This document shows positions 9,297 to 47,423 of a stretch of DNA of 64,000 nucleotides, in pieces. The position numbers were made by a program, and so were the translations under genes. The stretch is from the NCBI RefSeq assembly GCF_009730915.1, contig NC_052482.1, forward strand, positions 19,064,345 to 19,128,344, given 5' to 3'. Within the stretch, counting starts at the first letter, position 1, and the number at the start of each line of letters is the position of its first letter. Below the pieces are notes generated by a model. It was not told the DNA's origin and searched no databases. It saw only the letters and a list, made by a program, of their open reading frames with translations. Source of the stretch: Dioscorea cayenensis subsp. rotundata (lineage: Eukaryota > Streptophyta > Magnoliopsida > Dioscoreales > Dioscoreaceae).

Positions 9297-12200
9297 ATGG
9301 CTGATGCCGCTGGTGGTGGATCGCGGCCCAAGGTTTGGATTTGCTTTCCTTTTTTGAATTTATGCTCTTTTGGTATCTGAGTTTGTTTACGGTTTATGAT
9401 GTTTGTTTGTCAGAGGGCTCTGGAGGGTTTTGAGGAGATGGTGGATGGGGAGAAGCGGAAGAGAGTGAAGGGTTCAGGGACAGTGTCCGAAGGTAGTGTT
9501 CCCTCCTTTTCCATCGTAAAGTTGTCTCCTTTCGTAGAAGTAGTGGATTTATTTATTAATGTAAAATTTGGAAGTAATATGATTATGGGTTTGATTGGAG
9601 GTGTTTTATTTTCCCGCATGATCCGTGCTCTGTATAACAAATATTTAAAGTTATTCTTGTGAGAATTTGAAATTTTGTTGTGGCTTTATTGATCTACATT
9701 GGAATAGAAATGATGGATTTATACTGATTCTTTTATTGTTAGACAAATGTGGTTTCTTATTGAGGTTTAGATGTTCCTATCCTAGTTTTTTTACTCCACT
9801 TTGTTCGAGGAACATTAATTTCGAGTTATAGGGATGATTTGCAGTCCTTGTCAGTAGATATTTTTGGGCTACTCTAGCAAAGTTTATTTGGTGATAGAGA
9901 AATAATTGAATGAATGTTGATTTGGGTGACATCATTGGACTGCAAAAGGCGGGATCCTTAATTAGGCAGACTATTATGAGAATGGTGTTGACTTGGCTGA
10001 TATGGCTAACACATTATATGAACATTCTTGATTATAATTCAAATGGTGCTTTTGTTTTGATACTTTGGTTGACTTATTGCTGCTTGACTGGTTCTTTGTA
10101 GTAACTGACACAGAAAGGCAAAACTATAGCATTTGAAGAAGAAAGGATAGTTGTGGAGGGAGGTCTCTTATGATGCCTGGGTAGAACCCTGAATTTGATG
10201 GTGTTAGATATATATATATATATATATTATTTCTTGAATTATTTCATGCTTCTTTCCATTGTGTGCTTTTGAGATTCTTTTTGTTTTGAAAAAAATTATC
10301 ATTATTTTAGTAATCTGTAGGTGTATGGAGAAGCCTTTGATTATTTTTGGCTGCTGGTAATGTTAGGGTGGTTTATCCGGTTGGTCATACCCTCTTGGTT
10401 CAAGTTTGAGCTAGCATCAGCGTTAAGTTTGGTTAAAAATCTTAATTTTGTTTGTCATTCCATCGCATACTTGGCCAACTTTTCAGAAACAGAGTTTCTG
10501 ATTTCCTAGATGTTTCTTTTGGACAAATGTTTCTACAGGATTTTGACCCTTTAAATATCTGTATACACTGTGTTGCTGAGAGGATGGAGATTAGGGGATA
10601 TTAACCTTCTTTTGCTCTGTGCTTCCTATATGTCTGAAACTTTGATCCCTTTCTAGGTGGAGTATATGGACAGCCATCTGTAAGAGAGCCCTGGTAACTA
10701 ATGGGATGTGATAATATATATATATATATATATATTTTATTTACATTAGGTGGACAAATAAATGCTTCTAAGATGCCATACAACTCCTCCCGCCCATCCT
10801 ATTTATATGCCCACTGTAACCGATTTATGCCACTTTAACTGATTTACGCCGATTAAGAAAGTCTGTTAAATTTAGGGTGAAAGACTAAAAATTTATAAAA
10901 TATTACACCAACCTTCTAGAATTATCTTTTTTAAAAAGTCCATCAAGATTTCATTAGTTTCTCTTTATTTTTAATTATACTTAATTTTTATTTTTCTCTT
11001 TTAAAATGGTGCTTTTATGTCTTACAAAAAAACATTGAAAAGTGTAAAAAAATACATCAAAAATAGAGAATAAATTTGGAAAAAAATGATTATTTAATGC
11101 TTCATAGATTTTTCTAAATGGATATATAAAAAGAACTAGAGTAGAGGACATGCTAATAGGACCGGAGGGAGTACTATATACCAAAAAGCGATGTGATGTT
11201 AAGACATTGAAGTTTAAAGGTTGTTGTCATAAATATACATGAATTAACTTCCCCATGCTACATTGGAGGACCAATTGTTTTCAATCATGTGGTTTTCTGA
11301 GTTTTACTTGCAATTCCAATAATAAATATTGACCATGGTGTTTTCCTTTGCTAATGATCCGAATTACAAAACATCTAATTGGTACATATTTATTTATGAG
11401 AGATAGATAACCATTTATATCAAGCAAGGCATTTCATTGATTCTTGCCATCAGTTACTCTTTTTTATTGATTCCTTGACAAAGTTCTTTAATAGAGTTAT
11501 CCTTTTCGTTATCTTCCTTAAATTCTTTTATTTTAGTTACTTCTATATTTCAGGAACCAGAACTTACAATTCAGAATGCTTGAATGTAGCAGAATGCAAG
11601 TCTGATGGGCAACGGCACAAAAATTCTGAGGTGGAAGCTATTTGCCAAATCACTGAAGAAAATGTGCCCACACTTTTGGATATACCGATAAATGTGCCTG
11701 CTGTCAATAGGTTTCATGAACAAAATGCTGCTCCTTCAAGTTTGGGTGCTGATGGCTGCCAGCATTTTGCAGAACAGCAAAGCAATGCTCCTTCTAAACA
11801 CCATGAAGAGATGAATGGATCATACCCTGCTTCCAAAGCTGATAAAGATTGCCGTTCCCTAACAAGGACCATAACTGGCTCAAAAGTGGGGTTTACTGTT
11901 ATAGATGCTTCAAGGGCAATTGAACACAATCCATTTTACCCCTACAAGAAATTAGGACAGGTGAAATCAACAGATACCTCAGAATGTGGCAGCACTACTG
12001 GTCCTGTGGAGGAGAGTGAACCATTAAGAATGTGGAAAGAAATGAAGCAGAATGGCTTTCTCTCATCTTCACATGGAGGCATACCCATGCCCAAACAGCG
12101 TGGTAGGCATCATAGAAAAGATGAAAGAGCTTAAGAAGAGGAATGAGATAGCAAGAACATGCTAATAGGCTCACGAAGTGCTGCGCCGAGTGGATTGCTC

Positions 12201-13738
12201 TCAGGACTCAGCAGGGATCATAAACCATGTCAGGAATAGCAAAACAAGTCCACTCCATAATAGAAGCTATTGTGAGGTCTGAGAAGCTTGAAGGTCCTTG
12301 CCAAAATAAGTTTCCTAACCAGTCAGGAACAGAAAACAAGGAAAATTCTGAGAGGAGGAAAGAGCAGAACTACACGCATAATGCGGCAGCCAGTCAATTA
12401 AATCAATCCTTAAGTAGTTCAGATTATAGTATGCCAAGTTTTTCATGGCATACCTCTGAACAATGATGAAATCAGCTGACTCTAAAACTGTCATCAACTG
12501 CAACTATGAAAATCAGAGGATGGAAGCAGTGCCTATGTTAATGATCATTCAACAAACCAAGATGCTATTTGTTCTCTATCTTTAAAAGGTAACTTCCTTA
12601 TTATTTCTAACCTATGGGATCATATTTTAGTGGGAGGTTGAGTCATTTTAACAATTAACCATATGTTAAAAGAAAAGTTTGAACACACCATCAGTCACTA
12701 TTTGGAACTATGTTGCTGCATGCTAACTTGAACGCCTTTTCATTTGCAGCTGCTAATGTCGCTTCTCGGTGGCTGGATTTGCTTCAGCAGGATATCAAAG
12801 GACGTCTGGCTGGTAAAATTCTCTTTCAATGTGTTGAATATGGAATGCACCTGCCATCACAAGATATTGATGCCTTTGCTTTTGTTATTGCAGCACTGCG
12901 ACGTAGTAAGAAGAGGTAAGAAATGTGACTAGAGATTGAATTGCCTTACGTATTGTCAACTGGGAATCTCTTCAAACCAAGAAAATAGGCCTGCTTTGGA
13001 GCAATCCTCTGAGGCAGGGATTCTAAAGACAACAGTTCACAATATGCATGTGAAATCGATGGAAATCACTTTTGGTCAAATGGATAAAAGCCCTCACTGA
13101 GAGAAATATCTTGTGAGTACTCCACATTCCTTGATTTTATCATTTGTGTCGTGAATTACTTGCCATTTTAACAAATCTTGGTGCTTCTCTGTTGAATTCT
13201 GCACAAAAATTACTATGGATATTTGTCTTAGGTGAAGTTCAATCCGGGTTGAACTCTAGCTAATTGGTAAATTAGCCTGCTAAATATGTTTCGTCCAACA
13301 GTATCTCTATGGTTATAGTTAGCTGGTCGCTTTGTATCAGGAGAACTGGTTGAGACAAGTCCAAGAAATGCAATCACATTGTGATGAAAAGGCCTGAAAT
13401 ATGCCAGTCCTGATGGTATCAAACCATCTCGACCCTTTGATAGATTCCAGGTTAGGATTCAAAACCCCTTTCTTCCTTGTTCTTGCATATACTACTATAG
13501 CATATCCTCTACACACCGTAGTAGTTCTCACGAGCGATAATGAGTTCTATTTTTGTCTTGTCATTTGATCATACATGTTTCCCAACAATCTAACAATCAG
13601 AATGCATTGTTTCTCCATTGTCACTAGAATGAAGAAGCCTGATGCTCTAGAGCGTGAATGTGCAGTAAGAGCAGCTGCAGCTTCAATCTACTCAACAAAG
13701 CAATCTTAACCATGACAGAAAATGTACAATGTTTCTGA
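9297..13738 (+). CDS. Conserved plant protein of unknown function, multi-exon; frame interrupted by indels
   Basis: I recognise this as a conserved plant family but know no function. Splicing fits well at the start: exon 1 is 9297-9332 (starting MADAAGGGSRPK), exon 2 is 9414-9492, and exon 3 is 11554 to about 12588. Exon 4 begins near 12751. An 81-bp intron at 12814-12894 joins GRLA to ALRRSKKR. Conserved blocks follow in order: RMWKEMKQNGFLSSSHGG, then INHVRNSKQVHSIIEA (spanning an extra A near 12252), WLDLLQQDIKGRLA, DGIKPSRPFDRF (about 13410-13450) and a C-terminal AVRAAAASIYST block ending near QCF. The protein is basic and polar with no signal peptide or membrane segment, so a nuclear or cytosolic location is likely. 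Between 12120 and 12260 and again near 12917-12975 and 13715 the frame shifts by single or double bases without nonsense substitutions. The 5' leader (about 9010-9296) has the C-rich, aaaaccctaa style of plant leaders. Internal exon borders after 12900 are uncertain. Confidence 0.7.
10781..11171. mobile_element. Stowaway-like MITE inside intron 2 of the 9.3-kb gene
   Basis: Left end near ctcctcccgcccatcctatt and right end aataggaccggagggag are imperfect inverted repeats. TA follows on the right (11172-11173) and TA precedes on the left (10779-10780). AT-rich and non-coding. It lies in the long intron between 9492 and 11554, so it would be spliced out. Confidence 0.6.
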
Positions 13739-14380: not shown

Positions 14381-15940
14381 ATGGATCATCAGAGAATTCT
14401 TGTAGTGATGATGCTAATGGCCATGGTCTTAGCCATGGCAGACAAAGAGAAAGGAGGAGATGAGAGCAGAGAGGTTGTTCATGCTTAAGGATTCTAAACA
14501 GGTAGTGAAAAACAGAGGCCGGTGAGGTGAAAGTTATCTCAGGACCAAAACTAGACAGAGATATGCCCAATATGCACATTGGTTTCATCTCCATGGAACC
14601 AAACTCACTCTTCATCCCTCAATACATTGATGCCAATCTCATCTTCTTTGTCCGCAGAGGTACTGATACTGTTACTTTTGAATCTCCATGTGATTTTTTT
14701 CTGAGTTCTTTGATTTGTGTGAAATGGTAGGGGAAGTGAAGATGGGATGGATTTATAAAGATGAGTATGTGGAGAAGAAGCTTAAGATGGGAGATGTTAA
14801 CTTTATACCTGCTGGTTCAGCTTTCTATATGGTTAACACTGGCATTGGACAGCGTTTACAGATTATCTGCAGCATTGATGCTTCTCAAACCATTGGCTCC
14901 AGCTCTTACCATGTTAATCAAGCTCACTGTTTTGCTTCTTCTTCATTCTCACACAATTGTTTGATTTCTAATATGTTCTCTTGTTTTTCCAGCCTTTTTA
15001 CATTGCTGGAGGAATTAATCCATCCTCTGTTTTGTTCGGATTTGACATGGGCACTCTTACTACTGCACTCAATGTAAAGCTACAGAACTGATTAGAAAGA
15101 AGTTTTGAATTTAATCAATCTTTGATGTTGAATTTATGTATGTGTACATAGGCTACAGCTGAGGAAATAGGGAAGGTGATGACAAGCAGAACAGATGGTG
15201 CCATAGTGTTTATAGATGGAAAAGAAGCTGAGCCACCAGCTAAGTTCATGAAGAGGAAGCTGAAGGAGATGAGTGGAAGAAGAGATGGTGATGTTGATGT
15301 TGAAGATGGAGAAGAGATTGATGATGGTGGAGTTTGGACATGGAGGAAGATGTTAAGCTCATTGTTGAAAACTAGGAAAGGCAAAGCAAAAGGTCCAGTT
15401 AGAGCACCAGATTCATACAACTTGTATGACAGTGCACCAGACTTCAAGAACAAGTATGGATGGAGTTTGGCATTGGATGAGAATGAATATGAACCATTGA
15501 AACACTCTGATTTTGGAGTATACTTGGTGAATCTCACTGGAGGGACAATGCTTGCACCACATGTTAATCCCAGAGCAACGGAGTTTGGGGTGGTGCTAGG
15601 AGGAGAAGGGAGGGTGCAGGTGGTGTTTCCGAATGGGACGATGGCGATGAATGAGGAGGTGTCAGAAGGAGATGTTTTTGGGTGCCTAGGTACTTCCCTT
15701 TTTGCCACATTGCTTCAAGGAGTGGGCCAATGGAGTTCTTTGGATTCACTACGGCTGCGAGGAGGAACTGGCCGCAGTTCTTGGCTGGGGGCGAGGTCGC
15801 TGTTGAAGACAATGATGGGGCCGGAGTTGGCAGCAGGGTTTGGAGTGAATCAGACTAGGTTGAGGAGGATGGTGGAAGCTCAGAAGGAGGAATTGTTTCT
15901 ACCTACATGGCCTGTTAAGGAGGAGTTCATGAGTGCGTAG
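14381..15940 (+). CDS. Vicilin-like seed storage protein (bicupin), At2g28490-like; four exons
   Basis: A secreted, vacuole-type globulin of the vicilin-like cupin family, probably a seed protein. The start at 14381 gives a signal peptide (MDHQRILVVMMLMAMVLAMA). Exons: 14381-14659, 14731-14912, 14993-15073, 15152-15940, all with GT-AG borders and matching phases. The N-terminal cupin is visible in MHIGFISMEPNSLFIPQYID, EVKMGWIYKDEYVEKKL and GDVNFIPAGSAFYMVNTG. The C-terminal cupin is visible in PDSYNLYDSAPDFKNKYGWS, GVYLVNLTGGTMLAPHVNP and EFGVVLGGEGRVQVVFPNGT. The expected length is about 442 residues, shorter than some homologues. Four single-base frame breaks occur. One is an extra base near 14470 and one an extra A in A5 (14508-14512). 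A T is missing from T5 (15675-15679), and a G is extra in G5 (15787-15791). The last two cancel, so the normal C-terminus is kept. RY and G-box motifs upstream support seed expression. Confidence 0.85.
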
Positions 15941-15943
<3 letters not shown>

Positions 15944-15973: not shown

Positions 15974-15975
<2 letters not shown>

Positions 15976-16709: not shown

Positions 16710-18436
16710 TCATTCTTTGCATTCATCTCCTTGTATTGAATGAAAATGTTCATTTCCAGCCTTCAGTTGTTTTCCTGGTATCCTTTTGGGAACTACACCC
16801 CACTTCACTGCAGCTGCATACACTCCATAAGCATCCAGCAGTCTTCCTTGCCTTTCTAACTCACCAATCAAGACACTAAAAGAGAACTTGCCAGGAATTG
16901 TATCTTTCTCAAGCATAAGAATGAAAACATACATTGCATCATCAACTCTACCATCCCTACAGAGAACTCGGAGAACGACGTTGTATGTCAGCATTCTTGG
17001 AGAATAACCTTTCCCAATCATTTCGAGCAAATGATTGAAAGCTTGACTAACCTCTCCTTTCTCAGCAAGAGCTTGCACCATCAGGCAGTATGTGTAAGGG
17101 GATAGGGGATAACCCAATTCCATGATCTGCTCAAACAACTCCTTAGCTTCTTTGAGAGGTTCGTCATTTCTTGTAGATTTACGGCAAAGGCCCCTAAGGA
17201 GTGTGTTCATCACTCTTTCTGATGCTTGAAACCCTGCATTGTGCATTTTCATATAAGTCTGGAATGATACTGATATCAAACCAAATCTCAACAAGCCTTG
17301 AAGCAGAATGTTATAGCTGATGAAGTCTGGAGGGCAGCTTCTTCCTTCCATCTCCTTCAAAACCCGAATCCCTTCCAAAGGCCGGCCTTCTGTGCAATAC
17401 CCGCCGATAAGAGAATTATATGTGACAACATTCGGAACTAGACCCATTTCCAGAGCTTCATCAAGTAGCTCCCTCGCCTCATCTGATCTTCCAACCTTAC
17501 AAAATCCATCAATGACCAAAAGTGAATGAATATATATCCGGTCTCTTTGTAGACTTCTTGATCTTGTGCAATAGCTCAAGTGCTTCCTCCACTCTACCAA
17601 CATAACACAAACCTTGGATCAAACAATTATATGTTCGAACAGTTGGTTCGCAACCGATTCGCCTCATTATCTCAAAAAAATCTCGAAAGACATTGCCATT
17701 CTACCTCTCTTGCACAAACAAGTAATTAACTCAGTGAAAGTCACTACATTTGGCACAAAACCCCTTTCCATCATCTCATCCAAAGCTCGTTTTGCCTCAT
17801 CAGGCTCATTCTTCTTGCACAAACACTGAATCATCACTGAATAAGTCCATGAATCTGGAGAAACCCAAGAGATGGGAGCTCAGAGAACAAATTCACAGCA
17901 GAATCAAATTCCCTTGCCTTCACAAGAGCTGTGAGGATATCATTGTAATCCGAAACAGTCAAATCTCTATAATCACAATCCAACAGATCAAGAACCTTGA
18001 CACGCTCCTCAATGGGCAAGCTCATAACTTTTTTCACCAAATCACCAACATGCAACCTACTACTTCTCCTCCCACTATTCTCCACATCTAATAATCCATT
18101 AACCCTACACTCACCTGTTCCTCTTCCGTTTCCACATCAAAGTTAACAACTTTACTGGTGCTAACCTCATGAATTTCAGTTTTTGAAGTTTGAGGAGCAT
18201 CTAGGTCTTGTCTAGTGCATGATTTGTAGTTTGTGCTAAAAGTGGGAGCTTTCAGTGAGTGCTGTGCTTCTAGTGGAGAGAAATAGATGAGAAACAGGGG
18301 AATGAGTACCTTGCTGAGGTTCGGAGATGGGCAAACTCCTCCTCCTCCTCCTCTTTATCACAATTATGGATGATTTGCAGCATGGGAATGGGGATGAGGA
18401 GATCGAAAGATGAGAAGAAGAGGAGATGGAATGCAT
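16710..18436 (-). CDS. P-class pentatricopeptide repeat protein, organelle-targeted; frame interrupted by indels
   Basis: PPR proteins bind organelle RNA in sequence-specific fashion and affect its stability, splicing or translation. The clean C-terminal block (16710-17520) shows successive 35-residue repeats, for example LVIDGFCKVGRSDEARELLD, PNVVTYNSLIGGYCTEGR, PDFISYNILLQGLLRFG and RMLTYNVVLRVLCRDGRVDD. The upstream part continues in other frames with SPDSWTYSVMIQCLCKKNEP, VPNVVTFTELITCLCKRGRM and CEPTVRTYNCLIQGLC. There are no E or DYW domains, so it is P class. Frame changes sit in short runs: T3 coding (17861-17863, one short), T7 (17674-17680, one short), T4 (17518-17521, one long) and AAA (18129-18131, one short). 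The ATG at 18436 (MHSISSSSHLSISSS) opens a serine-rich presequence suited to plastid or mitochondrial import. The frame at 18236-18300 is unresolved. Intronless apart from this, as usual for PPR genes, about 575 residues. Confidence 0.8.
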
Positions 18437-22535: not shown

Positions 22536-25475
22536 TCAACTTATTTCAGCACATATGCTGCTTCCTTGAGAACAACTGACTAACTCTAGTATGTTCACCA
22601 CTTCGCTCATTTCGGGTCGGTTAGATGGTACTTGAGAAGTGCATATCAAGCCTAATTTGATCACTGGAACCATCTCCTCCGCCGGAATACATCCCTGGAG
22701 TTTCCCGTCGACAAATTCATCTGCTTTCCCTTCCTCCATTGCCTCCCTCATTACATCACAGAGCACGACAACATCATCCTCCATGTACTCTACCGGTCGT
22801 CTCCCTGTCATGATTTCCAGTATCAGTACGCCGAATGCATAAACATCGCACTTCTCAGTGATTTTGACTGATCGACAAGCGAATTCGGGCGCCATATATC
22901 CTAATGCACTCTGAATTTTGCTGCTAATCACGTATCTGTCCAGCATTGGTAACAATTTGGCCAATCCATAGTCCCCAACCTTCGGCACACCGGTGCCATC
23001 TATCAACACATTGCTCGATTTCAGATTGTAATGGATAATGTTCAGCTGATGAAGGTGAGCTAAACTCCTCGCAATGCCAAGAATTATATTGAGCCTTTCT
23101 CTCCATGAGAGTGTGTTTGATGCTGAATTTTCATGGAGGTGTTTGTATAAACTTCCACCAGACAGGAACTCATATATGAGAAGCTGCAAAGATGAAGTCC
23201 AGTAGTAGCCTTCAAGAGCAACAAGATTCGGGTGTCTAATCTTCGCAAGCTTCTTAATAACTTTCTCGAATTCATCTTGTGATTTCACCATGCTTGATAC
23301 TGTTAGCTTCTTGATCGCTACCGGTCTCCCATCTTTAAGAGTCGTCTTGTAGACAGTACCAAAACCACCACGACCAAGCTCACAGTCCTTGTTCAGGACT
23401 GCATGAGCACCGGCACTGAATTCAGGTTCCCCAGAGAACATGACAAGCTTGCCAGAGTTGGCTTCTGTGGTTTCCGACCGGCTGACATTATCATCAAAGA
23501 GAGCCAATGCAGCAGCAGAGTGAGGGGCCATTGACCGAACTCGAAGATTCAAGACTGTAATGCCAATGACACCAATGGCAATAACTGCAGCAGCACCAAT
23601 GGCGATGAGTGTTGAGATACTTAGAATGGTCTTCTTGTGTCCAAGGAACTCCGGTGAGGCTTTATGACTAGAATTATTAGGAGACGATGAGTTTGGATTG
23701 AGAACAATGGGCTTCGGGAGGACAGCAGGACAGGTGCGATGAACTGCAGAGCCACAAAGGCTGGGGTTATCGGATAAAGAGGATGCAGGGATGGTGTCAA
23801 AGAAGTGACCGGTGGGGACTGGGCCAGAGAAGAGATTGTGAGAGATGTTGAATGAATGGAGATGAGGAAGATCTGAGAGTTGCTTAGGAAGTGTTCCAGA
23901 GAACTTGTTATGGGAGATGTCTATGGTTTGCAGATTCATGGAATTTGCTAAGGTTGGAGGCAATGAACCAGTGAGGTTGTTTTGTGAGAGATTTCTAAAC
24001 AAACATAAAGATTCAAAATTTCAGAAATAAATAAAAGAATAACAATCAAAATGAAACAAAAACAATTTGAAGAACAAGATATGGACTTACAGTGATTTCA
24101 GAGAGATTAATTTGCCAATCTCTGAAGGGATGCTCCCATTGAGAAGATTATGGCTAAAATCAATGATTTCCAATGATCTCAAGTCGCCAATGTTTGCATG
24201 AATATGACCAGAGAAAGAATTGTGAGAAAGATTCAATGACTGCACACTCTGAATGCTTGAGATATCATCAGGAATGACACCAGAGAAAGCATTTCCAGAC
24301 AAATCCAAGACTGTGATTGTGGAATGATTCATCTTGGGAATTCTTAAAGAATCACTGAGTTTGTTCTCTGATATCAAAACTCTCTGCAACGTGGATTGGA
24401 AAAGCCATGAAGGGATTCCACCGGTGAATGAATTCCTACTGAAATCCACATCTGATAAGCTCTTGCAAGCTGCCATTGATTCCGGCAAGCTCCCAGTGAA
24501 GTTATTACCAGAAAGCTTCACCTCTTTCAATGCTGTGAGCTCGCTGATAGAATCTGGGACCTCGCCGGAGAATTTATTGTCAGATAAATCAAGAAACTGA
24601 AGCCTTATCAGCTCTCCAATCCAATGAGGAACTTCAACGGCGAAAGAGTTGGAGCCCAAGCTTAGATATTGGCACATGGATAGCCTCTGCATGGACACTG
24701 GGAGTTCACCGGAGAAGGAATTCCGGCCAAGGTCGAGACTTTTTAGTAGTAAACAAGCGCCAATGTCCTCCGGCAAGACGCCGGAGAGCCGGTTTCCTCT
24801 CAAGCTAATGGTTCTCAGATTGAACATTCGGTGAACTCCAGTGGGGACCTCGCCGGAGAACAAATTATCTGACAAATCAAGCATCCGAAGAGCATTCAAA
24901 TCCCAAAGCCCGGAGGGCAAAGCGCCAGAAAGCTGATTTGACGAGAGATTCATTGCCGCCAAGGTCGAGCAAGACCCAACATTGGCCGGAATCTCGCCGG
25001 AGAAGGCATTGTTGGCCAGAGAAAGGGTACGAAGCGACCTACATTGTGAGAAGAAGCCATCAGGAATAGGCCCCGAGAGGGAGTTCTCGCTGAGATCAAG
25101 AGTGCGGAGGCTCTCGAGGCGGAGAATCTCCGGCGAGAGAGGACCGGAGAAGTTGTTCCTGGAGAGGGAGAGCTTCCTGAGGGATCTAAGGCGGAGAAGA
25201 CCACGGACGCCGATCTTCCCGGAGAGGGAGAAGCCGGAGAGGGAGAGTTCGGAGACGAGGCTGGTCTTGGGGTCGCATAGCACGCCAGGCCAGCGACAGG
25301 GGGCATCATCGTCCTCGTTCCATGCGAGGAGCTTGGAGCTCGGGTCTTGGAGGTCGGCCTTGAAAACAATGAGGCCGAGAACGTCGTCGTTGAGGCCAGG
25401 CTCGGAGGAGAAAGCGAAGAAGGGGAGGAGGAGAAGGATGAGGAGGAGGAGCGAAGAGAGTGAAAAAGACGACAT
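22536..25475 (-). CDS. LRR receptor-like kinase of the IRK/PXC2 clade, atypical catalytic loop; two exons
   Basis: A plasma-membrane receptor-like kinase of LRR type, closest in my reading to Arabidopsis IRK (At3g56370) and PXC2 (At5g01890), which act in root and vascular cell division control. Exon 1 is 25475-24091; the intron 24090-23995 is GT-AG; exon 2 is 23994-22536. This gives 947 residues in one clean frame. Order: signal peptide (1-24), LRRNT ending in PCRWPGVLCDP, about 20 LRRs to residue 530, then CGSAVHRTCP and KPIVLNPNSS. The transmembrane segment is at 584-607 (ISTLIAIGAAAVIAIGV) and the kinase domain spans about 665-930. The glycine loop GRGGFG (669-674) and lysine in VAIKK (690) are present. 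HRD is replaced by HYN (783-785), so the catalytic aspartate is missing, and DFG is DYG (803-805). The HYN change is known in this clade. It therefore probably signals with little or no phosphotransfer. No frame damage, unlike its neighbours. Confidence 0.9.
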
Positions 25476-25704
25476 CTTGGAAGGGTTTCGATGGAGAGAG
25501 CTCTAGAGTTCCGCCATTAAAGATGGAGCTTTTAGAGCAAGCTCGCCATTAGCGAAGAGCTGCGAAGGTACACGAATCTCGAGGCAAAGAAAACGAATCT
25601 CAAGGCAATTTTAGTGAACGAGGTTGGAGTTTTGAGGGTTTAAGACGAGAAGCGAGATCCTCGGAGGTATTTATTGGGATGCTGGAAAGGGTCCCACATG
25701 GTGA

Positions 25705-26612: not shown

Positions 26613-27457
26613 ATACGTGAATAAATGAAACTTGGAAGAATTTTTAGGGCATTTCCAGTAAAAATTATTGTAGTGCAATATACATTTTGTTCTTAAAAAT
26701 AGAACTTTCAATAATTTTTTTTTTTTTACAAAATGTGAAAAAAAGGACATTTCATGTATGCAAAAGGCCAAGTGTAAGGATCAGTACCCGAGCACCGCAC
26801 GGTGGATCGTTGGTGCGATTGGACCGGGAGGACAGTGACACCAAATACTATTGGGTTACAAACCATTTGGTAAATTTCTTCTATAAATAAGGCTTTTAGA
26901 TAGATTGCTTTGTTTTCCAAACTAATTCAACGAAATGAGTAACTTTTTAAGAGGAAATGAATAAATTTATTGAAATGAGTATTTTGAAAATAAAAATATT
27001 GATTCATAAACAAGTAAAAGAATAATAATTATAAATAACCTATGACAAACTATAAAGCCGGTTGAATGCATGAAAAATATGCAATGTATGATGTTCACAG
27101 TTTATAATTATTGATGCTTTTAACAGTGAAATAATAATAACAATAAGAAGCATGATCTCTTCAAACATAAACAAAAATCATGGCAATTGATAAGTGATTA
27201 CTAAGCACTCCAATTAGCATAGTTTTCAATGTCACTGGTCTCAACACTGTTTACTTTATATTAAATAAGAGAAGTTAAACAAAAGAAGTGCTTGAACTAG
27301 TTATGAGCCAGCTAAAAAGCAAGTAATACAAAGAGGATGGCACTGATGAGCTCCAAAGTTTACATACATGAGAGCTTTATATCCATACCACCCCTTCATG
27401 ATTTTACCAGACATATAATTTAGCACTCTTGATTGTTTTTTCAAGAAACATATTCAC
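26613..27457. other. Intergenic DNA downstream of the sorting receptor gene
   Basis: Mostly AT-rich. A short GC-richer patch at about 26775-26850 (gcacggtggatcgttggtgc) stands out and resembles part of the GC-rich patch near 61.67 kb. The 3' UTR of the gene ending at 27458 must lie in the upper part. No gene seen. Confidence 0.5.
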
Positions 27458-30400
27458 TCAAATTTCACCATGATGACTATGGTGATTCGGAATTTCTTGA
27501 TTGTCCAATGGCATGTACTGAGCCATGATCGCGCGGATCTCCGAGTCCATGTAACTCTGGAAGGCCGAAGAATGAGAAAGAATATAATTTAATTGAAGTT
27601 GCAAAGAAAAGACGTCGAAGATGCATACCCGAATTCTATATTTGTAGATCGCATAGGCTCCAACTCCCTGCAATACATAGGCCTAAAAAAAGATAACCCA
27701 CAAGAAGCTCCAGCCGACCTCTGTTGTCGCCTTCTTACCTGCAGACAGATTTACCGAAAATATAGCTTTGTTAAGAATGTAAATGCATTATAAGGAAAAC
27801 ACACAAAATAGTGGTACAATCGAAAAATATACGCACTTATACAAGTATCATGCTCTTTCATGTATAACAGATCGCCACGGCAATTGCATTCGTAACTACC
27901 CCATGTATTCTTGCATTTGCACCCTGAACACTGACATGCGGTTCTCTCTTTGCATTCATCGATATCTAAGACCACCTTACTGTTAGAACATTGTGTAAAC
28001 AACTATGAATCAAAGATAACCAAATGTAGGTTGAAGTACCTTCGCATGAATCAATGCCATCACCCTTAAAACCAGGAGGGCATTTGCATCCCTGGACATG
28101 GTTTTCCTGTGAGGCAAATATCAAGTTGCTTATGCTCTAAAGAGAATGACATTTTTATGTTTAATGTTTTCTCCATCAATGGATTCACTTACTAAACAGG
28201 CAGAAAATGTGCTTCCATGTTTGGTATGCTTCCAACATCCGCCATTGTTAATTTCACATCTTCCGGTTCCGGATGCTATAAAAGAGATAATGTTTGCAAA
28301 TGTACTTTGGTTATTTCACAAATAAACAACAGGAATATCACAAATATAATAGGAAAACACAAACACTGGAGCTGCTGACCAATGGAGAAAAGTTCCTATA
28401 AAAAACACCTCCAGAGGGGCCTTGATTAGAAAGTGACGGCTTCTTCTCGAGGGACTGTAAGTGACAATAGAGAACAGCCCCCTTTTTTTTAACTTGCTAT
28501 CTCGAACAAAAACGATCATACATGATTTTCGGAATGGTATTCGACAAGTTGAAATGAGATGAATTTTAGCCTTTAGGTTAAGTGGGTAATGGGCTCAAAA
28601 TTTGTGGGTTATACAGGTGATGCCAACTAATTCAGAAACAGATATTTCCACACTTTCACAAGAAATCAAAATATAAAAATTTAAAGGCAGGTCTTGTATG
28701 GACTGCAGGTTGTTGCTTGGTGTTAAAACTCATTAAATTAGCCTTTGATTGATACCATGGTCTTCGTTTGTGGTGCAATGATCAATATAACAGACAAAGA
28801 AGCACTACTAGAATCCAAGGAAGTTATGCTTACTAAATGGAGAGTTTATGGAAAGAAGAACCAAAAAGCATTTAAAACCAATTAACAAAAAGACAGCAAA
28901 CCTGGGGTTATGCATCATATTTTTTTAAAGTGGAACTTGAGAACTTCTACAAAGTAGGACTCTATTATGGATTTCTGGCCAAATTCTTATCTCCCTGTCT
29001 GAGTTCTAGTTATGGTATAAATCTGTTTCTAAATCTACCACATAAACTTCAAGGACAAAATATGCACCTTCACAATGCGTATACCCATCTCCAACAAACT
29101 TGACACCTCGAACAATAGGGCACTCGCACACTCTTCCACGGAAAGTATCCTGTCATAGGGTGGATGGTGGGTTTTATGATAAGAGTATGAAAAGGAATAT
29201 GATCTCAAATGTTGGTCATAACAATCGAAAGAAATCCACCTTGCATGCAGTGGCATTAGCAACCTTATCTTCCCAGCATCCACCATTCCGTTCCAAGCAC
29301 TCATTTGTTTCTATTTCTAAAAGCCAGAATCATAAACCGAAAAATGCTGCAGTTAATTCCAAAACAAACTCCATAATAAATGCCACAGTAGACAAGCAAA
29401 GAATGAGAAAAGTAGCTCTGCAGCAAACTGACCTTCACTCAAACAAACACCTGGTTCAGTAGTCTCCTTGAAGCCTGCACAAATAGCCTTGAGCACAGCA
29501 CCTTTATCCAGTTTACCTGTAGATACATACCATAAAACCATGAAAAATGCTCCACCGAACTTATAATAAACTTTGAGTATGACATATTGGAAGTGAGATG
29601 CATACCTCTGTACTGTCGGTTGTTGATGACAAGAGTTGGCAAGATGGTCACATCACCGCGAGAATTTTTCCCAATCTAAGAACATGAAATTGTTGATTTG
29701 AAAGATATATAGCAAGAATGGGTATTCATAAAGAAAAAGAGCCTATGAGATAAGCAAAGTTTCAAAATTTCAATTCACCTGCGCATCTTGTTCAGCCTTG
29801 AGAACAGGATTTTCTACATCCACATTAGGATCTCCGATACATTTATCTATCTCTTTTAGATCTAGGCCTGTCAAAACTCATCAAAGACCATAAGCAAGCC
29901 TTCGCCTTTGAAAAAAATTAATAAGCATGATAAAAAAAAATAGTAATAAATGCAGAAGATCCATAACAAACTTACCCAATGACTTGATAACATCATCAGC
30001 ACACTCTTTAGTATACTTCTTTTCCTTCATTGGGCATCTAATTGAAAAATCTGTCACATAATCCCACCAAAGCCATGGCTTCCTACTTTCATTGGCAACC
30101 TTAAACACGCAGACCTGCCGTAAGTTTTGGACTACAACATCTTTCCCATCATATCCTTTGCTAAAGTCTTGTTCAGGATCAGGAGCACAGTAACGCCCAT
30201 GATTAATGCACTGTGATTTGCACTGCTTGCTCAAGATAAAAGCTTCAGGACAATACCAAGTAATGTAATGTGGTGTGAATTGGGTATAGCCCTTTTCTCA
30301 AGTATTTGCGCAGCTCCTTTGAAGTTCTTCACAAATTCCTCTTTGACTGTCACATTTGGGGCCACATTCATCATTGCTGTTAGTCCAGAACTCAGTACCA

Positions 30401-31599
30401 CTACGATCATCCGGATGGGGTAGTGACTCCCTCCAATCCAGGTTTACATTAACCATCTCGCCCTCTGTAAGAGCTTTCTTCAGACTATCCCCGAGGGCTT
30501 TACTTATAAGTACTGACGGAATGGTAATGCTCTGTAGATAATCAGGTTCACCCTTATCTTCCTCAGGTGTGTCCATAGTTAACAAAGGTTCTACCTTATC
30601 ATCGGCAACAAGAATGGCAGCAGCCCCAGCATTTTGTGCATTCCAAGCCTTTTGCAGTGAAAAAAGCAATCTGCCCAACATTAGAAAAGATTGATCAGAA
30701 GTCCGGAGCGCACAGAAGGTCTGTTATATAATCAATACTGGGTTTGATCAAATTTCCATATCATTTACCAAGTAATATACTACATGATGACGGCATGACC
30801 AAAATACTTTATAACAACAACAATAACACACTGCCAGTTCAAAGACAGTGAAAGTATTAACCTCCCAATTAAATTTACTTAAGATTTATAACATTTCAAA
30901 GTGAACACAATCATCGACGCTGAACAAGATGCAAGAACCACCAACATTAGGTAGCTGGAGTGAAGCAAGGATTTGAGTTCTAAACACTCCTACTGAGGAA
31001 ATTGTACCTAAATAATGACTTAGGCATAAAACAATTTAGATACAGATCAGCAAACCAAAAAAGATCACTTAAAAAGATAAAAACCCAGCAGCTTCAGAAA
31101 TCAGATAAAAAGTGACAGCAATTTTTACAGTATCAAGTGGAATGCAAACAAATCACCCTCAAGCCTGCAACCAAAATTGTAAACATCTTAATGATCAAGC
31201 AAATAGAAAGATCATCACCTCGTGCAAATAGATTAAAACACCAAAATTTCAATCAAAATAGAATCCTGATAAAAATCTAATAAGATAACAAAGGCAAGAT
31301 CTTTCACCTCCTCTGTCAACAAGAAGGAAGGTGGGGAATCCTCCTGGCTTGGACTTGAATGAGATATCAAACTCATCAAAACTCTTGCAGGCCTTCTTAT
31401 TTGCCTTTGGATAAACAGCAATGCCCACCATTGTTCCACCATACTGAGGAACACCGAAATTCCCAATGGCACACTCATAAACACCCTTCAGTGATTCAGG
31501 TGAGGTCACCTTCAAGCTGTTCTTCTCCACTAAAAATTTCCCCAAACTGGAATCCCAAAGCAACAGAACCCAGATAACAAACCACAGCTTCTCTCTCAT
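27458..31599 (-). CDS. VSR: Vacuolar sorting receptor (BP-80/VSR type), 12 exons
   Basis: A type I membrane receptor that carries proteins with vacuolar sorting signals from Golgi/TGN compartments towards the vacuole. Exons (minus order): 31599-31308, 30670-29976, 29867-29779, 29675-29606, 29516-29433, 29316-29240, 29149-29068, 28275-28193, 28106-28040, 27965-27837, 27738-27629, 27556-27458, all GT-AG with consistent phases. The sum gives about 625 residues, the usual VSR length. Visible in order: signal peptide ([20 protein letters not shown]), PA domain ([18 protein letters not shown]), the central cysteine-rich region ([16 protein letters not shown]), and EGF-like repeats ([18 protein letters not shown], and a calcium-binding [13 protein letters not shown]). 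A transmembrane segment is followed by the cytosolic tail with the sorting motif YMPL. Frame breaks lie in runs: A6 30660-30665, CC 30338-30339, CCC 30290-30292, A7 27685-27691 and CCC 27666-27668 (plus strand). Which VSR class it belongs to cannot be settled by reading. Confidence 0.92.
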
Positions 31600-39207: not shown

Positions 39208-39362
39208 TGTTAGAGTAATATCTTATTTGTATATATATAGTATACTTATACATATATACTCTTAAGTATATTTATTTTTATATTCATCTTCTTGTATTTA
39301 TATGGATTGATCTCACCCTGGTGAACACACATTCATTCCTTCTTTCATACTTTGTCTATCAA
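39208..39362 (+). repeat. Putative 3' LTR of the copia element
   Basis: Follows the polypurine tract gaggggg, starts TGTTAGAGTAATATC and may end ctttgtctatca at 39362. The TG...CA ends and position fit a short copia LTR. The right border is a guess because no matching 5' LTR exists in the window. Confidence 0.5.
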
Positions 39363-40055: not shown

Positions 40056-43000
40056 CTTCTTGGTATCCTTTTTGATGCGTCCGTTAGTACTTTCTGCACA
40101 CAAAGAAGTTGAAGAACATAACTCTCAGCATTACCTGATACGATGTGTCTGTACTCACCATCTCCGTCGCTCTAAGTTTTATTCCCTCAATTCCATCCTT
40201 CTCCTTTTTGAAGTCTGAGTGCCAAGAAGATGCCCTGTCAGTGTCCCCTAACAATGCGCTAAAGCTAAAAAAATTTGAATCGCAAGGACCTGATCTAGAA
40301 ATTTGATGAAATTCAAGCGTACGCAAGTGATGATGACCGAACCTCTATTGGGACTTTGGCGTGAAACAGGGGAACTGCATTCTGGATGATCTCTGATTGA
40401 TGTGGCAATTAGCAGCAGAAGACAAAAGCAAAATTATAAAGATTCACAATTAAATCAGAGTTTCTGTAATCACTACGCAGGATAATAATTAGAGATCATA
40501 AAGTAATTTAGAATTTCTGCAGGGAGAGATGAGGCTACATACATTGTATGCTGAATGCAGTCTTTGGCAACTTCACATGGACTTCCAGGTTTAGGTTCAT
40601 TCAATTGAGTCTTATTTTCTGAATGTTCACTATCCACGGAGCTATCCTTGGGTTGTTTACTGACAGCGGTTATACTGTTTTCTGAGGTTAAAGATTTCTT
40701 CTCAGTGGAAAACATCATTTTCTGGCTTCTCAAAGGTATGGAATGTTTTGGCAGCACTTTTGTTCCTTTGGCAGGCTAGTACGTTGGTTGCTCATATTGG
40801 AAACCATCAGCATGAGATATGTTTAGAAAATAGCCTTCCGCTTCCATAAAATGTTTGCCCGGTTTCTGCGTGTGAAAATCAAAACCTGATGATGGTTGTC
40901 CTGATTCTTCAACCCCGTGGTCAACTGGAAAGTTGGATTTCCCATTCAATTCTGTAGAAAAAAAGGCTTCGGGAGTGGGTATGCTGAAGAGGTCACCCTC
41001 AGGCTTTCTCTTGCAGCTAAAAGAACTGGTATCAAGTTCAGTTGAAGTAAATCCTTCCTCGAATGGAGGAATGCTTTCTGGTTCCCAGACCGTCTGAAAA
41101 ATAGAGAGTTCTTGCAAATGACGACTTGCTTTTGGGCTCCCCTGATTTTGCGCTTTCTCAGATCGCTGCGACCCAACCAAATTGTTTTTCTGGCGAACTT
41201 TACCCAGACCGGCGTGAATTGCTTTCTTGGCAGAAAATTTCTGAACTTTTTTGGAGGGACTATGGAACTGTTCCCAATCATTAAAATTACTGTGTCTACT
41301 TCCAATTCCAATCGACTGAGATTCAAATTCATAACTCCTTTCCTCTCCAACTGCAGAAATAATGTAATAGGCGTAAAAATGAGCATGCTCAAATTAAAAA
41401 TTAAAACTATACAATTAGAAGCATACGATTATGAAGAATTACCCGCTGTGGATGAGCATGACTCTTCACTGTAAGAAGTTCCACGAAATCCAAAGAGTTG
41501 AGTCCAAATTTCAAGATAACAGATCAAGATAATTTGACTATATAAAAAAAAAATCAGTTACAAGAATCAAAGTTTACCTGAATAAACTGAAGCTGTCATG
41601 CATATCTTCCTTTCCAGTGAAAGACCAAGCATGAGGATCAATGGTTGTCTCAAAGTTAGCACTACTATTAGTTGCAGAATTCCTGTTTAGCGCTGGAATT
41701 AGAACTAGGATAAAAAGGCTGTGCACAAGCAATACGTAAACCAGAATCAACTAGAATCTATTTCCCAACAGAGCCTGAAAATATTACACTCTTTCTGCTG
41801 TTAACTGTCTGAAATCTGAGGTCAATGGTGCTGAATTCTGGAAGCCACCTAAAGACAATGATGAAAGATAAGTGAGAGAACAGGATGATAAAAGTATGAG
41901 CCATTGAGTGAAGGTGCATACGAACATGCTCAAGCAATTTAAATCAGTCAAATTCAAGAAGTACTGAAAAAAATATATATATGTATGTATATATATAGTT
42001 CTCATAGTTAAATTTGTGGAACCACAGTTGCAACTCCATAAATTCCTACAAGCCAGGACTCTGAAATCCAAGGATATTCAGCATATGAAATCCATCCACA
42101 ATAAAAGATGGAAAACAAGATTAAAGGTTTTTTTCAAATTGAACATAAAATACATAAACAAGAAGACTGCTAAATCTGCAAAAGACAATGCAGTGATGAG
42201 TATAAATCCGCAAAAGGTAATGCAGTCTGTAGGATAAACTCTCTGCTTGAGCACACGCACATTCATACATATCCCTCAAATCATAGTATCCTCTGAAACA
42301 AGTCTGATAAAATTGTGCATGTCTCTACTTGCCCATGAACTTGAGCAGTCTTCAAACACTCCCAAGAACTTTCATTTTATGTAATTAGCAAACCATTAAG
42401 CCTAAAATATTAATATGAATTATATTCTGACGATATATTGCAGAAAAGGGGAAAAAGCTGTCACAAGGAACATATATTGAATATGCATCTGGTTCTTTAA
42501 AGATATAACAATATCAATGTTTAGCATCAGTAACATATTCTAGAGCCTTAATGGGTGCATGAAAACCTGAAAAGTCAAAGCTTTTATCTATGCTTGTTCC
42601 AGTCCTGCATGAAGACAATACAAAAAACTTATGCTGTCAGAAAATAGATGAATACAAACATTTGAATATAGATTAAAACAACAAACCTAACCTGAAGTTA
42701 TCTAAAAAGGGGTCTTCAGGGTTTACTACAGTTCTTTTAGCTTCTGGGAAAAGAGAAAGACAGCCATCTGCATGAAATGGTTTCTTCTTCCATGCGTCAT
42801 AGTTCATTTGATCATGGAATTTTTCATCTAAGAGGCCAAAGCTAACTGAAAATAATGACAGGATTACAGGATAAGGCTCTGACGGTGGTGAATAATAGCC
42901 AAAAGGAATAGAGGCAAATATGTGCAAAGTTCACTCATAGTAAATTATGCTTTGTGAACAAAGTAAAAAACAGTATGATCATTCATACAAAATACTTTTC

Positions 43001-46000
43001 TTTAGGTTTCACCTAAGCTGAGCAATAGCAAGAATAGCTCACCACCATCATACCAGGAAAAAGCTTTTGTGTTAAAAACAGAATCATCTATATTGTGAAC
43101 AGAAAGCAGTACGAGAACTACTACTGGAATTAATGGTCAGTTTGTTGACATAAAATTTTCTAGCACTAAAATTGCTCTCATTAACATGTTAAATTCAAAT
43201 GGAGAGATGAGAATATCAGGAAGGTGATATACCATCATATTGCTGTTTCCTTTGACAATCTGCATAAGACCTAGTGTATTTTCCATCACTTTCAGAACTA
43301 TAAACTGATCGCAAAGAAATCTGTAGAAATAATGTATGTTTTCTGAACATTGTGTTTTTCCATATTCTCCAGCTCATCAAGCATGATGTTTGAAATGTGT
43401 AATGATTCTGGTGAGCTCCATCTGTTGACATTTTGATGTCATTTATCATGGTATCCTGTAGAAGTAGAAGCACCACATTATTATACTGAGGCACTGCAGA
43501 TACTGGGTAATTTAGTGTCAAATTGAGGGTAAATTTAAAACTCAATCAGAAACACTGAATTCACTTGAGAACTCCCAAAACTTAAGCACCAAACAGTTGT
43601 ATGTGTACTGTGGAACTCTGATTTTAACAATATCAAAACACCATGAAACTCTGATTAGCTATCTTGAAAAAGAAGTTTAAATAAATTTTCAGGCCTATTA
43701 CTGTCCTATAAATGTATAAACTGTGAATGAGGAAAATTTGATAATCTAATTTAGCAACTGACGAAAAATCTAATAAAGTCAAGAATTTCAAAACAATGAA
43801 AAAGTGAAACACCTTGCAAGTATAACTCTTGCAATAAATATGACTTTAGTAATAAAAGTGCTATATCAATATGATAACCACAAAATAATAGCAAAAATAT
43901 TCTGTTTAAAAGTATTTGTACCTCAAAGTAAAGAGGACATTACTGAAAAATAGCACATGATTTGACTCTTGAATGGTCGTGCGCAGTTTAAACAAAGGTA
44001 GCTTATTGTAAGATAGCAAGACCAGAGTATATTTCCACTAGGACACAGTATGTCACACAAAAGATTCTCTGGAGAACATAAGTAAAAAAAGCAGAATTGA
44101 GCTGTATTTCCTGAGATTGAAATTATTCGAAACACAGATCACTTCAGCTCCAGCAATGTATGTTGCAGGATATTTGTCATAATCAGAATTTGTAAACATT
44201 AGATCCAGGTAGTTGCAATATACAGTAAAATATCTACTCAGTGTTTATCTTGGCATTCAGTATAACATCCACACAAATTGTTTGACATCTTAAATTATTT
44301 TTTCACTAATTTTCAAGATAAGCAATCATAACACAAAGAAAACACAGTAAGGATCCAGGTCCTTACCAATTTGAACCCTAGGCTCCCTATGAACAGACCA
44401 TGTTCCCCTAAAAGAATGGATCCACCTTGAGACCTTTTGGTGGTCGAGGTAAATTCCTATAGGAGACTCTTTTGTATGACATGCAAAAACAAGACAGGAA
44501 TCAGAGCATAATATAGATATAAAATGCATTCACCATGCATTAGGAACCTACCACCCTCAGTATAAATTTAAAAAAAAAAACAAAGCAATTTCCTTTGCAA
44601 TCACGTAGAAAACAGAAAAAGGAGAGAAATTCAAAATATACCACATAGAAAACAAATAGAAACATGATCGCATACATCCACATCTAGTCCAATAAGAAAT
44701 TCACAGAGTAATAGAATGACAAGGGCATATATAAAAGAAAAATTCTCTAAAAAGTAAGAACTAAGTAGTGGCACTCCTTTATTAGAAAATAGAGATTGAC
44801 AGAACACATTTTTAAGAGCTACTTTCAAAGGCCGAAGTTCTGATTTTAAGTGACAATGTATTTATGTAGCTGATAGAGGTATTGGCATGCTAGATCATCA
44901 TTTAGGGTCCACAGACACCCATTTCATGAAGGAAATATGTGCTTACGGACATTTAATGATGATAAGTTCATGACAAATACAAAAATGCATAAACAAATGA
45001 AATAGAATGGTCCAAGAAAGAGAGATCTTAACCAAAAAGTGCAGAAAAAGAACTAGAAGCATTAATCTGTCACATATCTCAAAAATAATTTCTCATTTGC
45101 TCCAAGTTATTAAGTTCAATCACAAATCTCAGACATCAAATAAGCTTTTATAGGTTCAAATCGGTTAACCTATCTTGAAATCTTGGTGAATGGGCAGGAG
45201 TTATCATTCCAATCTTACCAAGACCTGCAAAAGAGTAGTCATGAGAAAAGGTACAGATAAAATCAGGAATAATATCAGAGGCATCACAACTGAATTAAGT
45301 GAAGTGTGGGTTCAACAGAATCAACTGATTTACAAACATTAGAATTTGAAGTCTTAAAACTGATATGATTTTTGTGGCAGTTCTCAAGGATACAATTCTA
45401 CGAGCGGTGAAAGCACAGGACATGGATATGGACTATTGAACGCTGGTTAATGCTCTTATTCAAGATATAACATACCTGAAGGCCATTCCTAAAAAGCATG
45501 AGGACAAACATGAATAAAAAATTAAGGGAAAGAAGCATTTTCCAACAATTTCTTAGATTTTAAGGCCGAGATGAAGGAAAGCTAATGAGAACAAAAGGGG
45601 TGTTTCCATGCAGATTCAGCAGCAAAAGATGGATACAGCATAGAAGATTGTAAAGCTAAAAATGTAACCCAATGGCCTCCTTAAAAAATTTATCTCCAAG
45701 AGATCCTCCAACATAACATAAACAAAAGGAAAGAAGAATGCTTAACACAGATTCAGATAACTTGGGTATAATATAATGAAGAAATAGAAATGAAGGCCAG
45801 ACCAGATAATTTATCATATTGTGAGAGCGTTAATAGCCATTTTGAGATTGACCAAATTAACAGTGATTATATCAAAAAGTCAAGAACTGTGCCTGTCAGC
45901 TCAGTTTCAGGAAAAATGATGAAAAATACCTTCTACAGAAAATGCAACATAGTGGTTCAGGAACTGATCCTCCTCCAAAATCATTTCTTGGTCTATCATC

Positions 46001-47423
46001 ACTGAGCAAGTCAAGAACTGAAACCTCTGGAAAGACAATACCAAGAAAAATGTCAAAATGCAATAAAATATTATATCTGCCTGAAGAACTAAATTTTCTC
46101 ACATATTCTCTAACTCTATTAAGTATCTTTTTCAAAAAATCCTGAATAATCCTTGAAAGGTGATACGCTCCAAAAAGCTTTGCAATTAAACCTCCAAACA
46201 AGTTTGCGCATTCACCAGTTTGAACTTCGCCATTTGGTACAGTGCTAACGTTGGTGGGTAGGGATTTACTAGGGCATTCTGGTGGCTTCACCCCATCATA
46301 ATCCAAACTAACTCCATTGGCAGTTGATACAATGTTAGAAACATTGGTTTCAGGCAATCTGCCAGATAAACATACCAAAGCTAGTTCAGTCACTGGAAAC
46401 ATAAAAGGAAAAACAAATTAAAAAAAAAAGATTTGTGAAACTCACTTCTTTGGAGATAAAGTAGTTGCTTCAGGACCTAAAAATACATCAAACAGTAATC
46501 AGGCAACCAGACTCATGATATAGGAATCAACATATTATGTTTAGTCAGACTTGCAGGAAAGTTACTTTTTAGATCCTACATTGGCACATAGGATTTGGTG
46601 GCAAGCCCTCCTTCAGGAGAGGATGCCTTGCCAGCTGAGATATCAGTTTAATAATAATTATGGAGAAACCTTATATATCAAAGTTAATTAAGTGATCTAC
46701 CATACTACTTTTACAATTATAGCTAGTGAATGAGAAATGCCTTGACTTACATGCTTCCTGTGAATCATGAGAATATCTGTTGATGATTTTCTTCAATGCA
46801 ACTGCAGGGGAAAGCTTGGATGAATGACATTTCATTTGTGGACCACCAATCGCTGGGCCACCATAAAGTAAATGTAAGTGATTTATGACAAATAGAATTT
46901 AAATGAATCAATCTGGTTAATTACCATGCTTGGGCTATAACAAAATGAATAACAGCAATTTTGTGTTCTGAGGCCAATAAATAGGAAAGTGCAATGAAAC
47001 CAGATGAATCCCATGAGAACCTAAAGGCACTTGCAACAGATGATGGAAAACCATTTCTCAGGCATGATTTTGGTTTGTAAACACAAAAAGTGTCTCATGT
47101 GTAGAGAGCCTAATTGAAATCAGCACATTTTTAACTGTATGGGATACTATATAATTTAGAGGATGTAATATACATTATACAATACGATACATGCCAAAAG
47201 TAAAAACCATTTCAGCAAGCATACATGTAAATTTGAACTTACCATTGGCCTGATTGGGGTACCCTTGCCAAGTAATAGTTTCCAAATTTATCAAACTGAC
47301 AATGTCTAGTGACCTCGGTTCCTCATAGTAATTGGCGTGTTTGTTTCTTGCAGAATCATTGTCTAGTCCAGGCGCCCGTTGTTGCCGTTTCCTTTGTTCA
47401 AAATATTGTTTTTGCCTAGACAT
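40056..47423 (-). CDS. Conserved plant protein of unknown function, many exons; one in-frame TAG
   Basis: I recognise a conserved plant family but know no function. The start codon at 47423 gives MSRQKQYFEQRKRQQ. Exons supported by GT-AG borders: 47423-47243; 46852-46751 (IGGPQMKCHSSKLSPAVALK); about 46391-45940 (probably two exons, the second giving EVSVLDLLSDDRPRNDFGG); 45224-45170 (GLGKIGMITPAHSPRFQD); about 43370-43229; 42845-42692 (EKFHDQMNYDAWKKKPFHAD); about 41690-41579; and a short exon near 41460-41436 giving SEESCSSTA. A long exon runs 41350 to about 40540, and a last visible one about 40320-40056 (LLCVQKVLTDASKRIP, after restoring a missing G near 40124). The long exon carries TAG at 40778-40776 (QPTY stop PAKG), after which the same frame stays conserved to about 40540. 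The protein is serine-rich and polar without membrane segments, so it is probably nuclear. A non-coding leader exon lies at about 49616-49740. Confidence 0.7.

What the first reader, a model, noticed from the sequence alone, without database searches (positions are those of the whole stretch)
9297..47423. Indel-only frame breaks, mostly in homopolymers, across five of six host genes
The vicilin-like, PPR, VSR and both unknown genes stay conserved at the protein level on both sides of single-base length changes. Most sit in runs: A5 14508, T5 15675, G5 15787, A7 17674, AAAA 17518, CCC 30290, A7 27685, CCC 27666, and the A4 near 12252. Nonsense substitutions are almost absent in these genes, whereas the LINE and copia copies have many. 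This pattern fits residual consensus errors of a long-read or pyrosequencing assembly better than five independent pseudogenes. Automated annotation here will split or shorten genes. The LRR kinase gene has no such break, so the error rate may vary locally.
Basis: partly seen in the sequence, partly recalled or inferred. Interest (0 to 1): 0.75.

Follow-up and report, generated by a model that had tools for sequence, protein, structure and literature searches.

The report
Sequencing errors breaking plant gene frames
Several ordinary plant genes in this stretch look broken by one-letter length slips, mostly in runs of one base, and the pattern fits leftover mistakes in the genome assembly better than truly dead genes.

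Summary
The frame breaks are in the sequence. Three host genes carry 12 breaks of 1-2 bases in about 4.5 kb of coding sequence: vacuolar sorting receptor (5), vicilin-like cupin (4), PPR protein (3). Ten were placed by frameshift-aware alignment, one of them (14468) only with one template at a lowered penalty; two rest on reading frames alone. The receptor is 405/526 identical to Arabidopsis VSR1 and keeps 35/35 cysteines. Eight of 12 breaks sit within 4 bases of a run of 4 or more, against 14.4% of coding positions. No nonsense codon appears in the aligned parts; LINE ORF2 shows 4 nonsense codons and 2 frame changes (P=0.005). Residual consensus error is the best explanation.

Limits: the two unknown genes could not be tested, and one has an in-frame TAG. 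Lack of nonsense alone is weak evidence (P about 0.02-0.10). Breaks are unevenly spread: none seen in the LRR kinase or LINE ORF1, so a uniform rate fails. A rice nanopore assembly shows such clustering where short-read coverage was low (PMC7736813, passages). No reads were available, so the decisive test is open.

The parts
14381..15937 (+). Vicilin-like (7S cupin) gene, four exons, four frame breaks (about 14468-14474, A5 at 14508, T5 at 15675, G5 at 15787); exon edges approximate
   Evidence: Three-frame translation; Cupin_1 on one piece above cut-off; best solved homologues 4lej and 6l4c; frameshift-aware alignment (the first break only with 6l4c at the lower penalty)
16713..18000 (-). PPR-repeat gene, three breaks inside the repeat array (17862, 17674-17675, 17520-17523)
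   Evidence: PPR_2, 6 stretches in 16710-17510; alignment to a solved consensus PPR repeat, 381 matched codons, 0 stops. A further frame change near 18100 and the 5' end are unresolved and not counted
22539..25484 (-). LRR receptor-like kinase, two open exons, no frame break seen: internal control
   Evidence: LRR models on one exon and kinase models on the other, solved relatives, 0 stops in 494 and 465 codons; not run through the frameshift-aware aligner
27455..31594 (-). Vacuolar sorting receptor, three lumenal breaks (30643-30659, about 30343, 30292) and two in the membrane exon (A7 27685, about 27667); outer exon edges approximate
   Evidence: 405/526 identity and 35/35 Cys to Arabidopsis VSR1 8r4y, 9 introns; membrane exon by reading frame
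9297..13710 (+). Unknown gene 1 (limits approximate); its long exon changes open frame several times between 12100 and 12520; not verified by homology
   Evidence: Frames; no Pfam match above cut-off; codon model not specific
40540..47423 (-). Unknown gene 2 (limits approximate); in-frame TAG at 40776-40778 and one possible frame change near 43433, the latter by eye; not verified by homology
   Evidence: Open frames and sequence; no Pfam match above cut-off
50093..52948 (+). LINE ORF1, open throughout: second control without breaks
   Evidence: 952 codons, 0 stops; DUF4283 at E 8.7e-06, just below its cut-off
52912..56584 (+). LINE ORF2: 4 stop codons (53437, 54583, 54754, 55569) and 2 frame changes, read from the open pieces; described only, pieces searched apart
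   Evidence: Pieces; Exo_endo_phos above cut-off, RVT_1 and zf-RVT below cut-off on 4 other pieces; stop codons shown
4882..5881 (.). Run of exactly 1000 N, which looks like a fixed-size scaffold gap

Best explanation
The frame breaks in the receptor, cupin and PPR genes are residual consensus errors of the assembly, mostly miscounted base runs. The living plant most likely has intact genes here. Errors survive in patches where correction with accurate reads failed, so some genes are hit several times and others, such as the LRR kinase, not at all. Shown: the breaks, their sizes, their link to runs, the conserved protein around them, and the uneven spread. Inferred: that reads would show other run lengths, and that patchy correction explains the spread.
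For: Twelve breaks of 1-2 bases in 4462 nt of coding sequence in three neighbouring unrelated genes, with 0 nonsense codons in the aligned parts. VSR: 405/526 identical, 35/35 Cys, one residue gap, and identity near breaks (77/95) no lower than elsewhere (328/431). Runs of 4 or more within 4 bases at 8/12 breaks against 14.4% of positions, P about 5e-5; all three runs of 6-7 in these coding sequences coincide with a break. LINE ORF2 in the same window shows 4 stops to 2 frame changes against 0 to 12 (P=0.005). Published parallels: a rice ONT assembly polished with 70x short reads kept on average 1.06 errors per kb, in clusters, and about 94% of those regions had short-read coverage of 5 or less (PMC7736813, passages); fungal ONT genes broken mostly by run-length indels, with widely differing error rates in orthologous genes of sister strains (PMC7500977, passages).
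Against: No reads or transcripts were seen. Breaks are not uniform: 0 seen in LRR kinase plus LINE ORF1 (5733 nt, 60 runs of 4 or more) against 8 at 55 such runs in the broken genes (Fisher P=0.002). Four of 12 breaks lie at runs of only 2-3 bases. Zero nonsense is only mildly unexpected for recent pseudogenes (P 0.10 to 0.02 at 5.4 to 8.7 substitutions per indel; 0.27 at 3 per indel). The cysteine result alone is weak too (P 0.20-0.37 by chance). Unknown gene 2 has an in-frame TAG.
Confidence: 0.86

Rival explanations
1. The genes are young pseudogenes: each lost its function recently and gathered several small frameshifts by natural slippage.
For: Slippage also favours runs; the nonsense count alone does not exclude it (P 0.02-0.10, 0.27 at a ratio of 3); gene 2 carries an in-frame TAG; breaks spare the LRR kinase.
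Against: It needs three neighbouring unrelated genes to die independently, each with 3-5 small breaks, no larger indel seen, and full cysteine conservation in the VSR lumenal part. In one Arabidopsis set, pooled over control and magnet-exposed lines, 77% of new indels are 1-3 bp (PMC10731980, passages); 12 of 12 being that short has probability about 0.04 (my arithmetic). With 0 nonsense codons the joint probability is roughly 0.001-0.004 if the two are independent, before counting the coincidence of neighbouring genes.
Confidence: 0.1
2. The breaks are hidden by biology: tiny introns, recoding or RNA editing of run lengths restore the protein.
For: Several opposite shifts lie close together and restore the frame (about 14474/14508, 15675/15787, 30343/30293).
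Against: No residues are missing at the three lumenal VSR breaks (1 residue gap in the whole alignment, an extra residue), so nothing is spliced out there; no shared signal was seen by eye; no such editing is known to me for plant nuclear genes (recalled).
Confidence: 0.02
3. The window mixes haplotypes or collapsed repeats, and correction with mixed reads left wrong run lengths. This is a special case of assembly error, so its odds overlap with the best explanation.
For: Fits the patchy distribution.
Against: Not testable without reads; VSR and PPR each align as a single clean copy.
Confidence: 0.1

Closest known systems
Clustered residual indels in the rice ONT assembly (PMC7736813, passages read)
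   Same: About 1 error per kb, a 1-base deletion shown to shift a frame, errors in clusters
   Different: There HiFi reads showed the errors; about half of them were substitutions; here no reads and no technology are known
Homopolymer frameshifts in nanopore-only fungal genomes (PMC7500977, passages read)
   Same: Indels mostly in runs, insertions and deletions, widely differing error rates in orthologous genes of sister strains
   Different: There short reads corrected the run lengths; here a third of the breaks lie at runs of 2-3
Ordinary plant pseudogenes
   Same: Frame breaks, also favoured in runs
   Different: Here breaks are only 1-2 bases, without nonsense in the aligned parts or larger indels seen, in neighbouring unrelated conserved genes

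Membership tests
Residual assembly consensus error | Single or double base length changes concentrated in runs | tested here: met
   8/12 at runs of 4 or more against 14.4% expected; 4/12 at runs of 2-3
Residual assembly consensus error | Protein conserved on both sides of each break | tested here: met
   VSR 77/95 identical near the three lumenal breaks, 328/431 elsewhere; cupin and PPR alignments resume after the breaks. The two membrane-exon breaks were not tested
Residual assembly consensus error | Accurate reads disagree with the consensus at the site | not testable with these tools
   No reads; the search of the window's own assembly was busy at every try
Residual assembly consensus error | Rate uniform along the contig (simple random error; not required of clustered error) | tested here: not met
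   0 breaks seen in LRR kinase and LINE ORF1; P=5e-5. Clustered error is still allowed (PMC7736813, passages)
Plant pseudogene | Nonsense codons beside frameshifts | tested here: not met
   0 stops in the aligned parts of the three genes; expectation 2.3-3.8, so P 0.10-0.02: weak on its own. Gene 2, not aligned, has one TAG
Plant pseudogene | Loss of conserved functional residues | tested here: not met
   35/35 VSR cysteines kept; weak alone (P 0.20-0.37); tested for VSR only
Plant pseudogene | An intact copy elsewhere, or no transcript from this copy | not testable with these tools
   Genome search unavailable; no transcripts

The most novel reading that the evidence does not exclude
The block is a genuinely decaying gene neighbourhood, for example a recently hemizygous or silenced segment, in which several unrelated genes have fresh slippage frameshifts while the LRR kinase is kept by selection.
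Probability: 0.05. Interest if true: 0.5.

Novelty: not a real feature. Interest (0 to 1): 0.1.

Why it matters
If the breaks are consensus errors, automatic annotation of this contig will split or shorten conserved genes, and studies that count pseudogenes or missing genes from this assembly will be misled. The local tally (12 breaks in 4.5 kb of three genes, none seen in 5.7 kb of two controls) tells users that error is patchy, so a whole-genome quality score would hide it. It is not new biology.

Tried and rejected
A codon-usage frame model meant to test the two unknown genes was not specific. At a permissive prior it called 3 shifts in gene 1 and 4 in gene 2, but also 5 in the clean LRR kinase and 11 in the LINE. 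At a strict prior it missed most known breaks and still called 1 in the LRR kinase. An earlier version trained on misframed blocks was discarded after the frame check. None of these is used.

Pfam scans of the unknown genes gave only weak, implausible matches below cut-off. A search for direct repeats in 31900-40200, to find an LTR pair of the copia remnant and so compare indels with substitutions in neutral sequence, gave only AT-rich local repeats. The LINE contrast was kept but marked as confounded.

Programmed frameshifting and micro-introns were considered and rejected: no residues are missing at the lumenal VSR breaks and no common signal was seen by eye.

Weak points of my own counts. 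In one search one cupin block (15795-15937) was given in the wrong frame and was dropped by the script, so the nonsense fraction rests on 942 codons of 9 of 10 blocks. In one search several template alignments placed false long introns and the two templates differ by up to about 30 bases on the last two cupin breaks; the break at 14468 was found only with 6l4c at the lower penalty. The 30643-30659 break is net +2 or -1 and is counted once. The intron ends are canonical by construction of the aligner, so they are no test. The LRR kinase and LINE ORF1 were checked as open frames only; two compensating shifts inside an open frame would be missed.

Full report
What was checked. By its genes the window looks like plant nuclear DNA; the species was not identified. 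It has one gap of exactly 1000 N at 4882-5881. The finding says that five of six host genes are broken only by small length changes, mostly in base runs, and that these are assembly errors. I tested each gene for which a homologue could be found.

Vacuolar sorting receptor. A read-through of the minus strand matched Arabidopsis VSR1 (8r4y) over chain residues 1-535 at E 1.3e-298. That search used joined pieces, so I repeated the comparison with my own aligner, which allows introns and frameshifts and works on the raw DNA. It gives 405 of 526 identical residues, 35 of 35 cysteines of the template, 9 introns, one residue gap, no stop in matched codons, and three frame breaks at about 30658, 30343 and 30293. 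The first is a net +2 or -1 beside a T6 and an A4 of the coding strand and is counted as one. Forbidding frameshifts lowers the score from 2262 to 2189. Identity within 20 residues of a break is 77/95 and elsewhere 328/431. The membrane exon, outside the VSR1 alignment, changes frame twice, at the A7 at 27685 and near 27667, by reading frames only.

Vicilin-like cupin. The gene at 14381-15937 matches Cupin_1 and solved 7S proteins, best 4lej at 1.8e-36. Aligned against segments of two templates about 30% identical to it, it breaks at 14505-14508 (A5, both templates), near 15675 (T5) and near 15787 (G5); a break at about 14468 appears only with 6l4c at the lower of two penalties. The templates disagree by up to about 30 bases on the T5 and G5 breaks; the reading frames place them at the runs.

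PPR gene. The array at 16713-18000, minus strand, matches PPR_2 in 6 stretches of 16710-17510. Aligned to eleven copies of a solved consensus repeat it gives 381 matched codons, no stop, and breaks at 17862-17863, 17674-17675 (the A7 of the plus strand) and 17520-17523 (A4). A further frame change near 18100 and the 5' end remain unresolved and are not counted.

Controls. The LRR kinase (22539-25484) has two open exons of 494 and 465 codons with no stop, LRR models on one and kinase models on the other, and solved relatives for both. LINE ORF1 is open for 952 codons. LINE ORF2, read from its open pieces, has stop codons at 53437, 54583, 54754 and 55569 and two frame changes; of the 5 pieces scanned, the endonuclease piece is above its Pfam cut-off and the four others only below.

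Unknown genes. Gene 1 (9297 on) and gene 2 (down from 47423) have no Pfam relative above cut-off. Gene 1 changes its open frame several times between 12100 and 12520, and gene 2 has an in-frame TAG at 40776-40778 with open sequence continuing beyond it. A codon model could not decide, since it also called breaks in the clean control. These two genes are therefore neither confirmed nor refuted.

Statistics. Twelve breaks fall in 4462 nt of three genes. Eight have a run of 4 or more within 4 bases; coding positions in the same genes do so in 14.4% of cases (P about 5e-5). With a 2-base margin it is 7/12 against 9.9%, with a 6-base margin 8/12 against 18.7% (P 1e-4 and 5.5e-4; all). Host genes against LINE ORF2: 0 nonsense to 12 frame changes against 4 to 2, Fisher P=0.005. 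This contrast is confounded by faster C-to-T decay in silenced transposons (established knowledge, not tested). For neutral decay I took substitution-to-indel ratios of 5.4 (rates quoted there from Ossowski 2010) and 8.7 (946 to 109, pooled over control and magnet-exposed plants), both from passages of PMC10731980. Enumeration over 942 codons gives 3.6% nonsense per substitution, so 2.3 to 3.8 nonsense codons are expected and zero has probability 0.10 to 0.02; at a ratio of 3 it is 0.27. All breaks being 1-2 bases adds a factor of about 0.04, my arithmetic from the 77% share of 1-3 bp indels in the same paper.

Uneven spread. If breaks fell uniformly by length, all 12 would land in the three broken genes with probability 0.0026 (LRR kinase as the only control) or 5e-5 (with LINE ORF1). 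Counting runs of 4 or more gives 8/55 against 0/60, Fisher P=0.002; with runs of 4-5 only, 5/52 against 0/60, P=0.019. Simple uniform error is rejected, but clustered error is not. In a rice nanopore assembly polished with 70x short reads, errors averaged 1.06 per kb, formed clusters, and about 94% of those regions had short-read coverage of 5 or less (PMC7736813, passages read). In nanopore-only fungal genomes most gene errors were run-length indels, with widely differing rates in orthologous genes of sister strains; the same paper says that PacBio-only fungal genomes do not share this run-length problem (PMC7500977, passages read). A pear genome project used RNA-seq to correct coding frames for this reason (PMC6901071, passages read).

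Verdict. Residual, patchy consensus error is the best explanation (0.86). Recent pseudogenes (0.10) are disfavoured mainly because neighbouring unrelated genes would have to decay in the same restricted way. The sequencing technology cannot be inferred: both gains and losses occur, and a third of the breaks lie at runs of 2-3 bases. Reads would settle it; none were available, and the tool holding the window's own assembly did not answer.

Noticed in passing
22539-24020: The LRR kinase has HYN where kinases have HRD and DYG where they have DFG (motif names recalled, read), so it may be an atypical or inactive kinase.
   Followed up: no
40776-40778: In-frame TAG in unknown gene 2, with open coding-like sequence continuing beyond it to a possible splice donor; the only nonsense candidate I noticed in the host genes.
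   Followed up: partly
1-2870: A second, decayed LINE-like element on the minus strand, with endonuclease-like and ORF1-like pieces in several frames, by eye from the open-frame list.
   Followed up: no
32923-33331: Short AT-rich direct repeats of 88-98 bases, 68-93% alike, spaced about 92-155 bases apart.
   Followed up: no
   Followed up: partly
4882-5881: Exactly 1000 N: looks like a fixed-size scaffold gap, so the contig probably comes from a scaffolded assembly.
   Followed up: no
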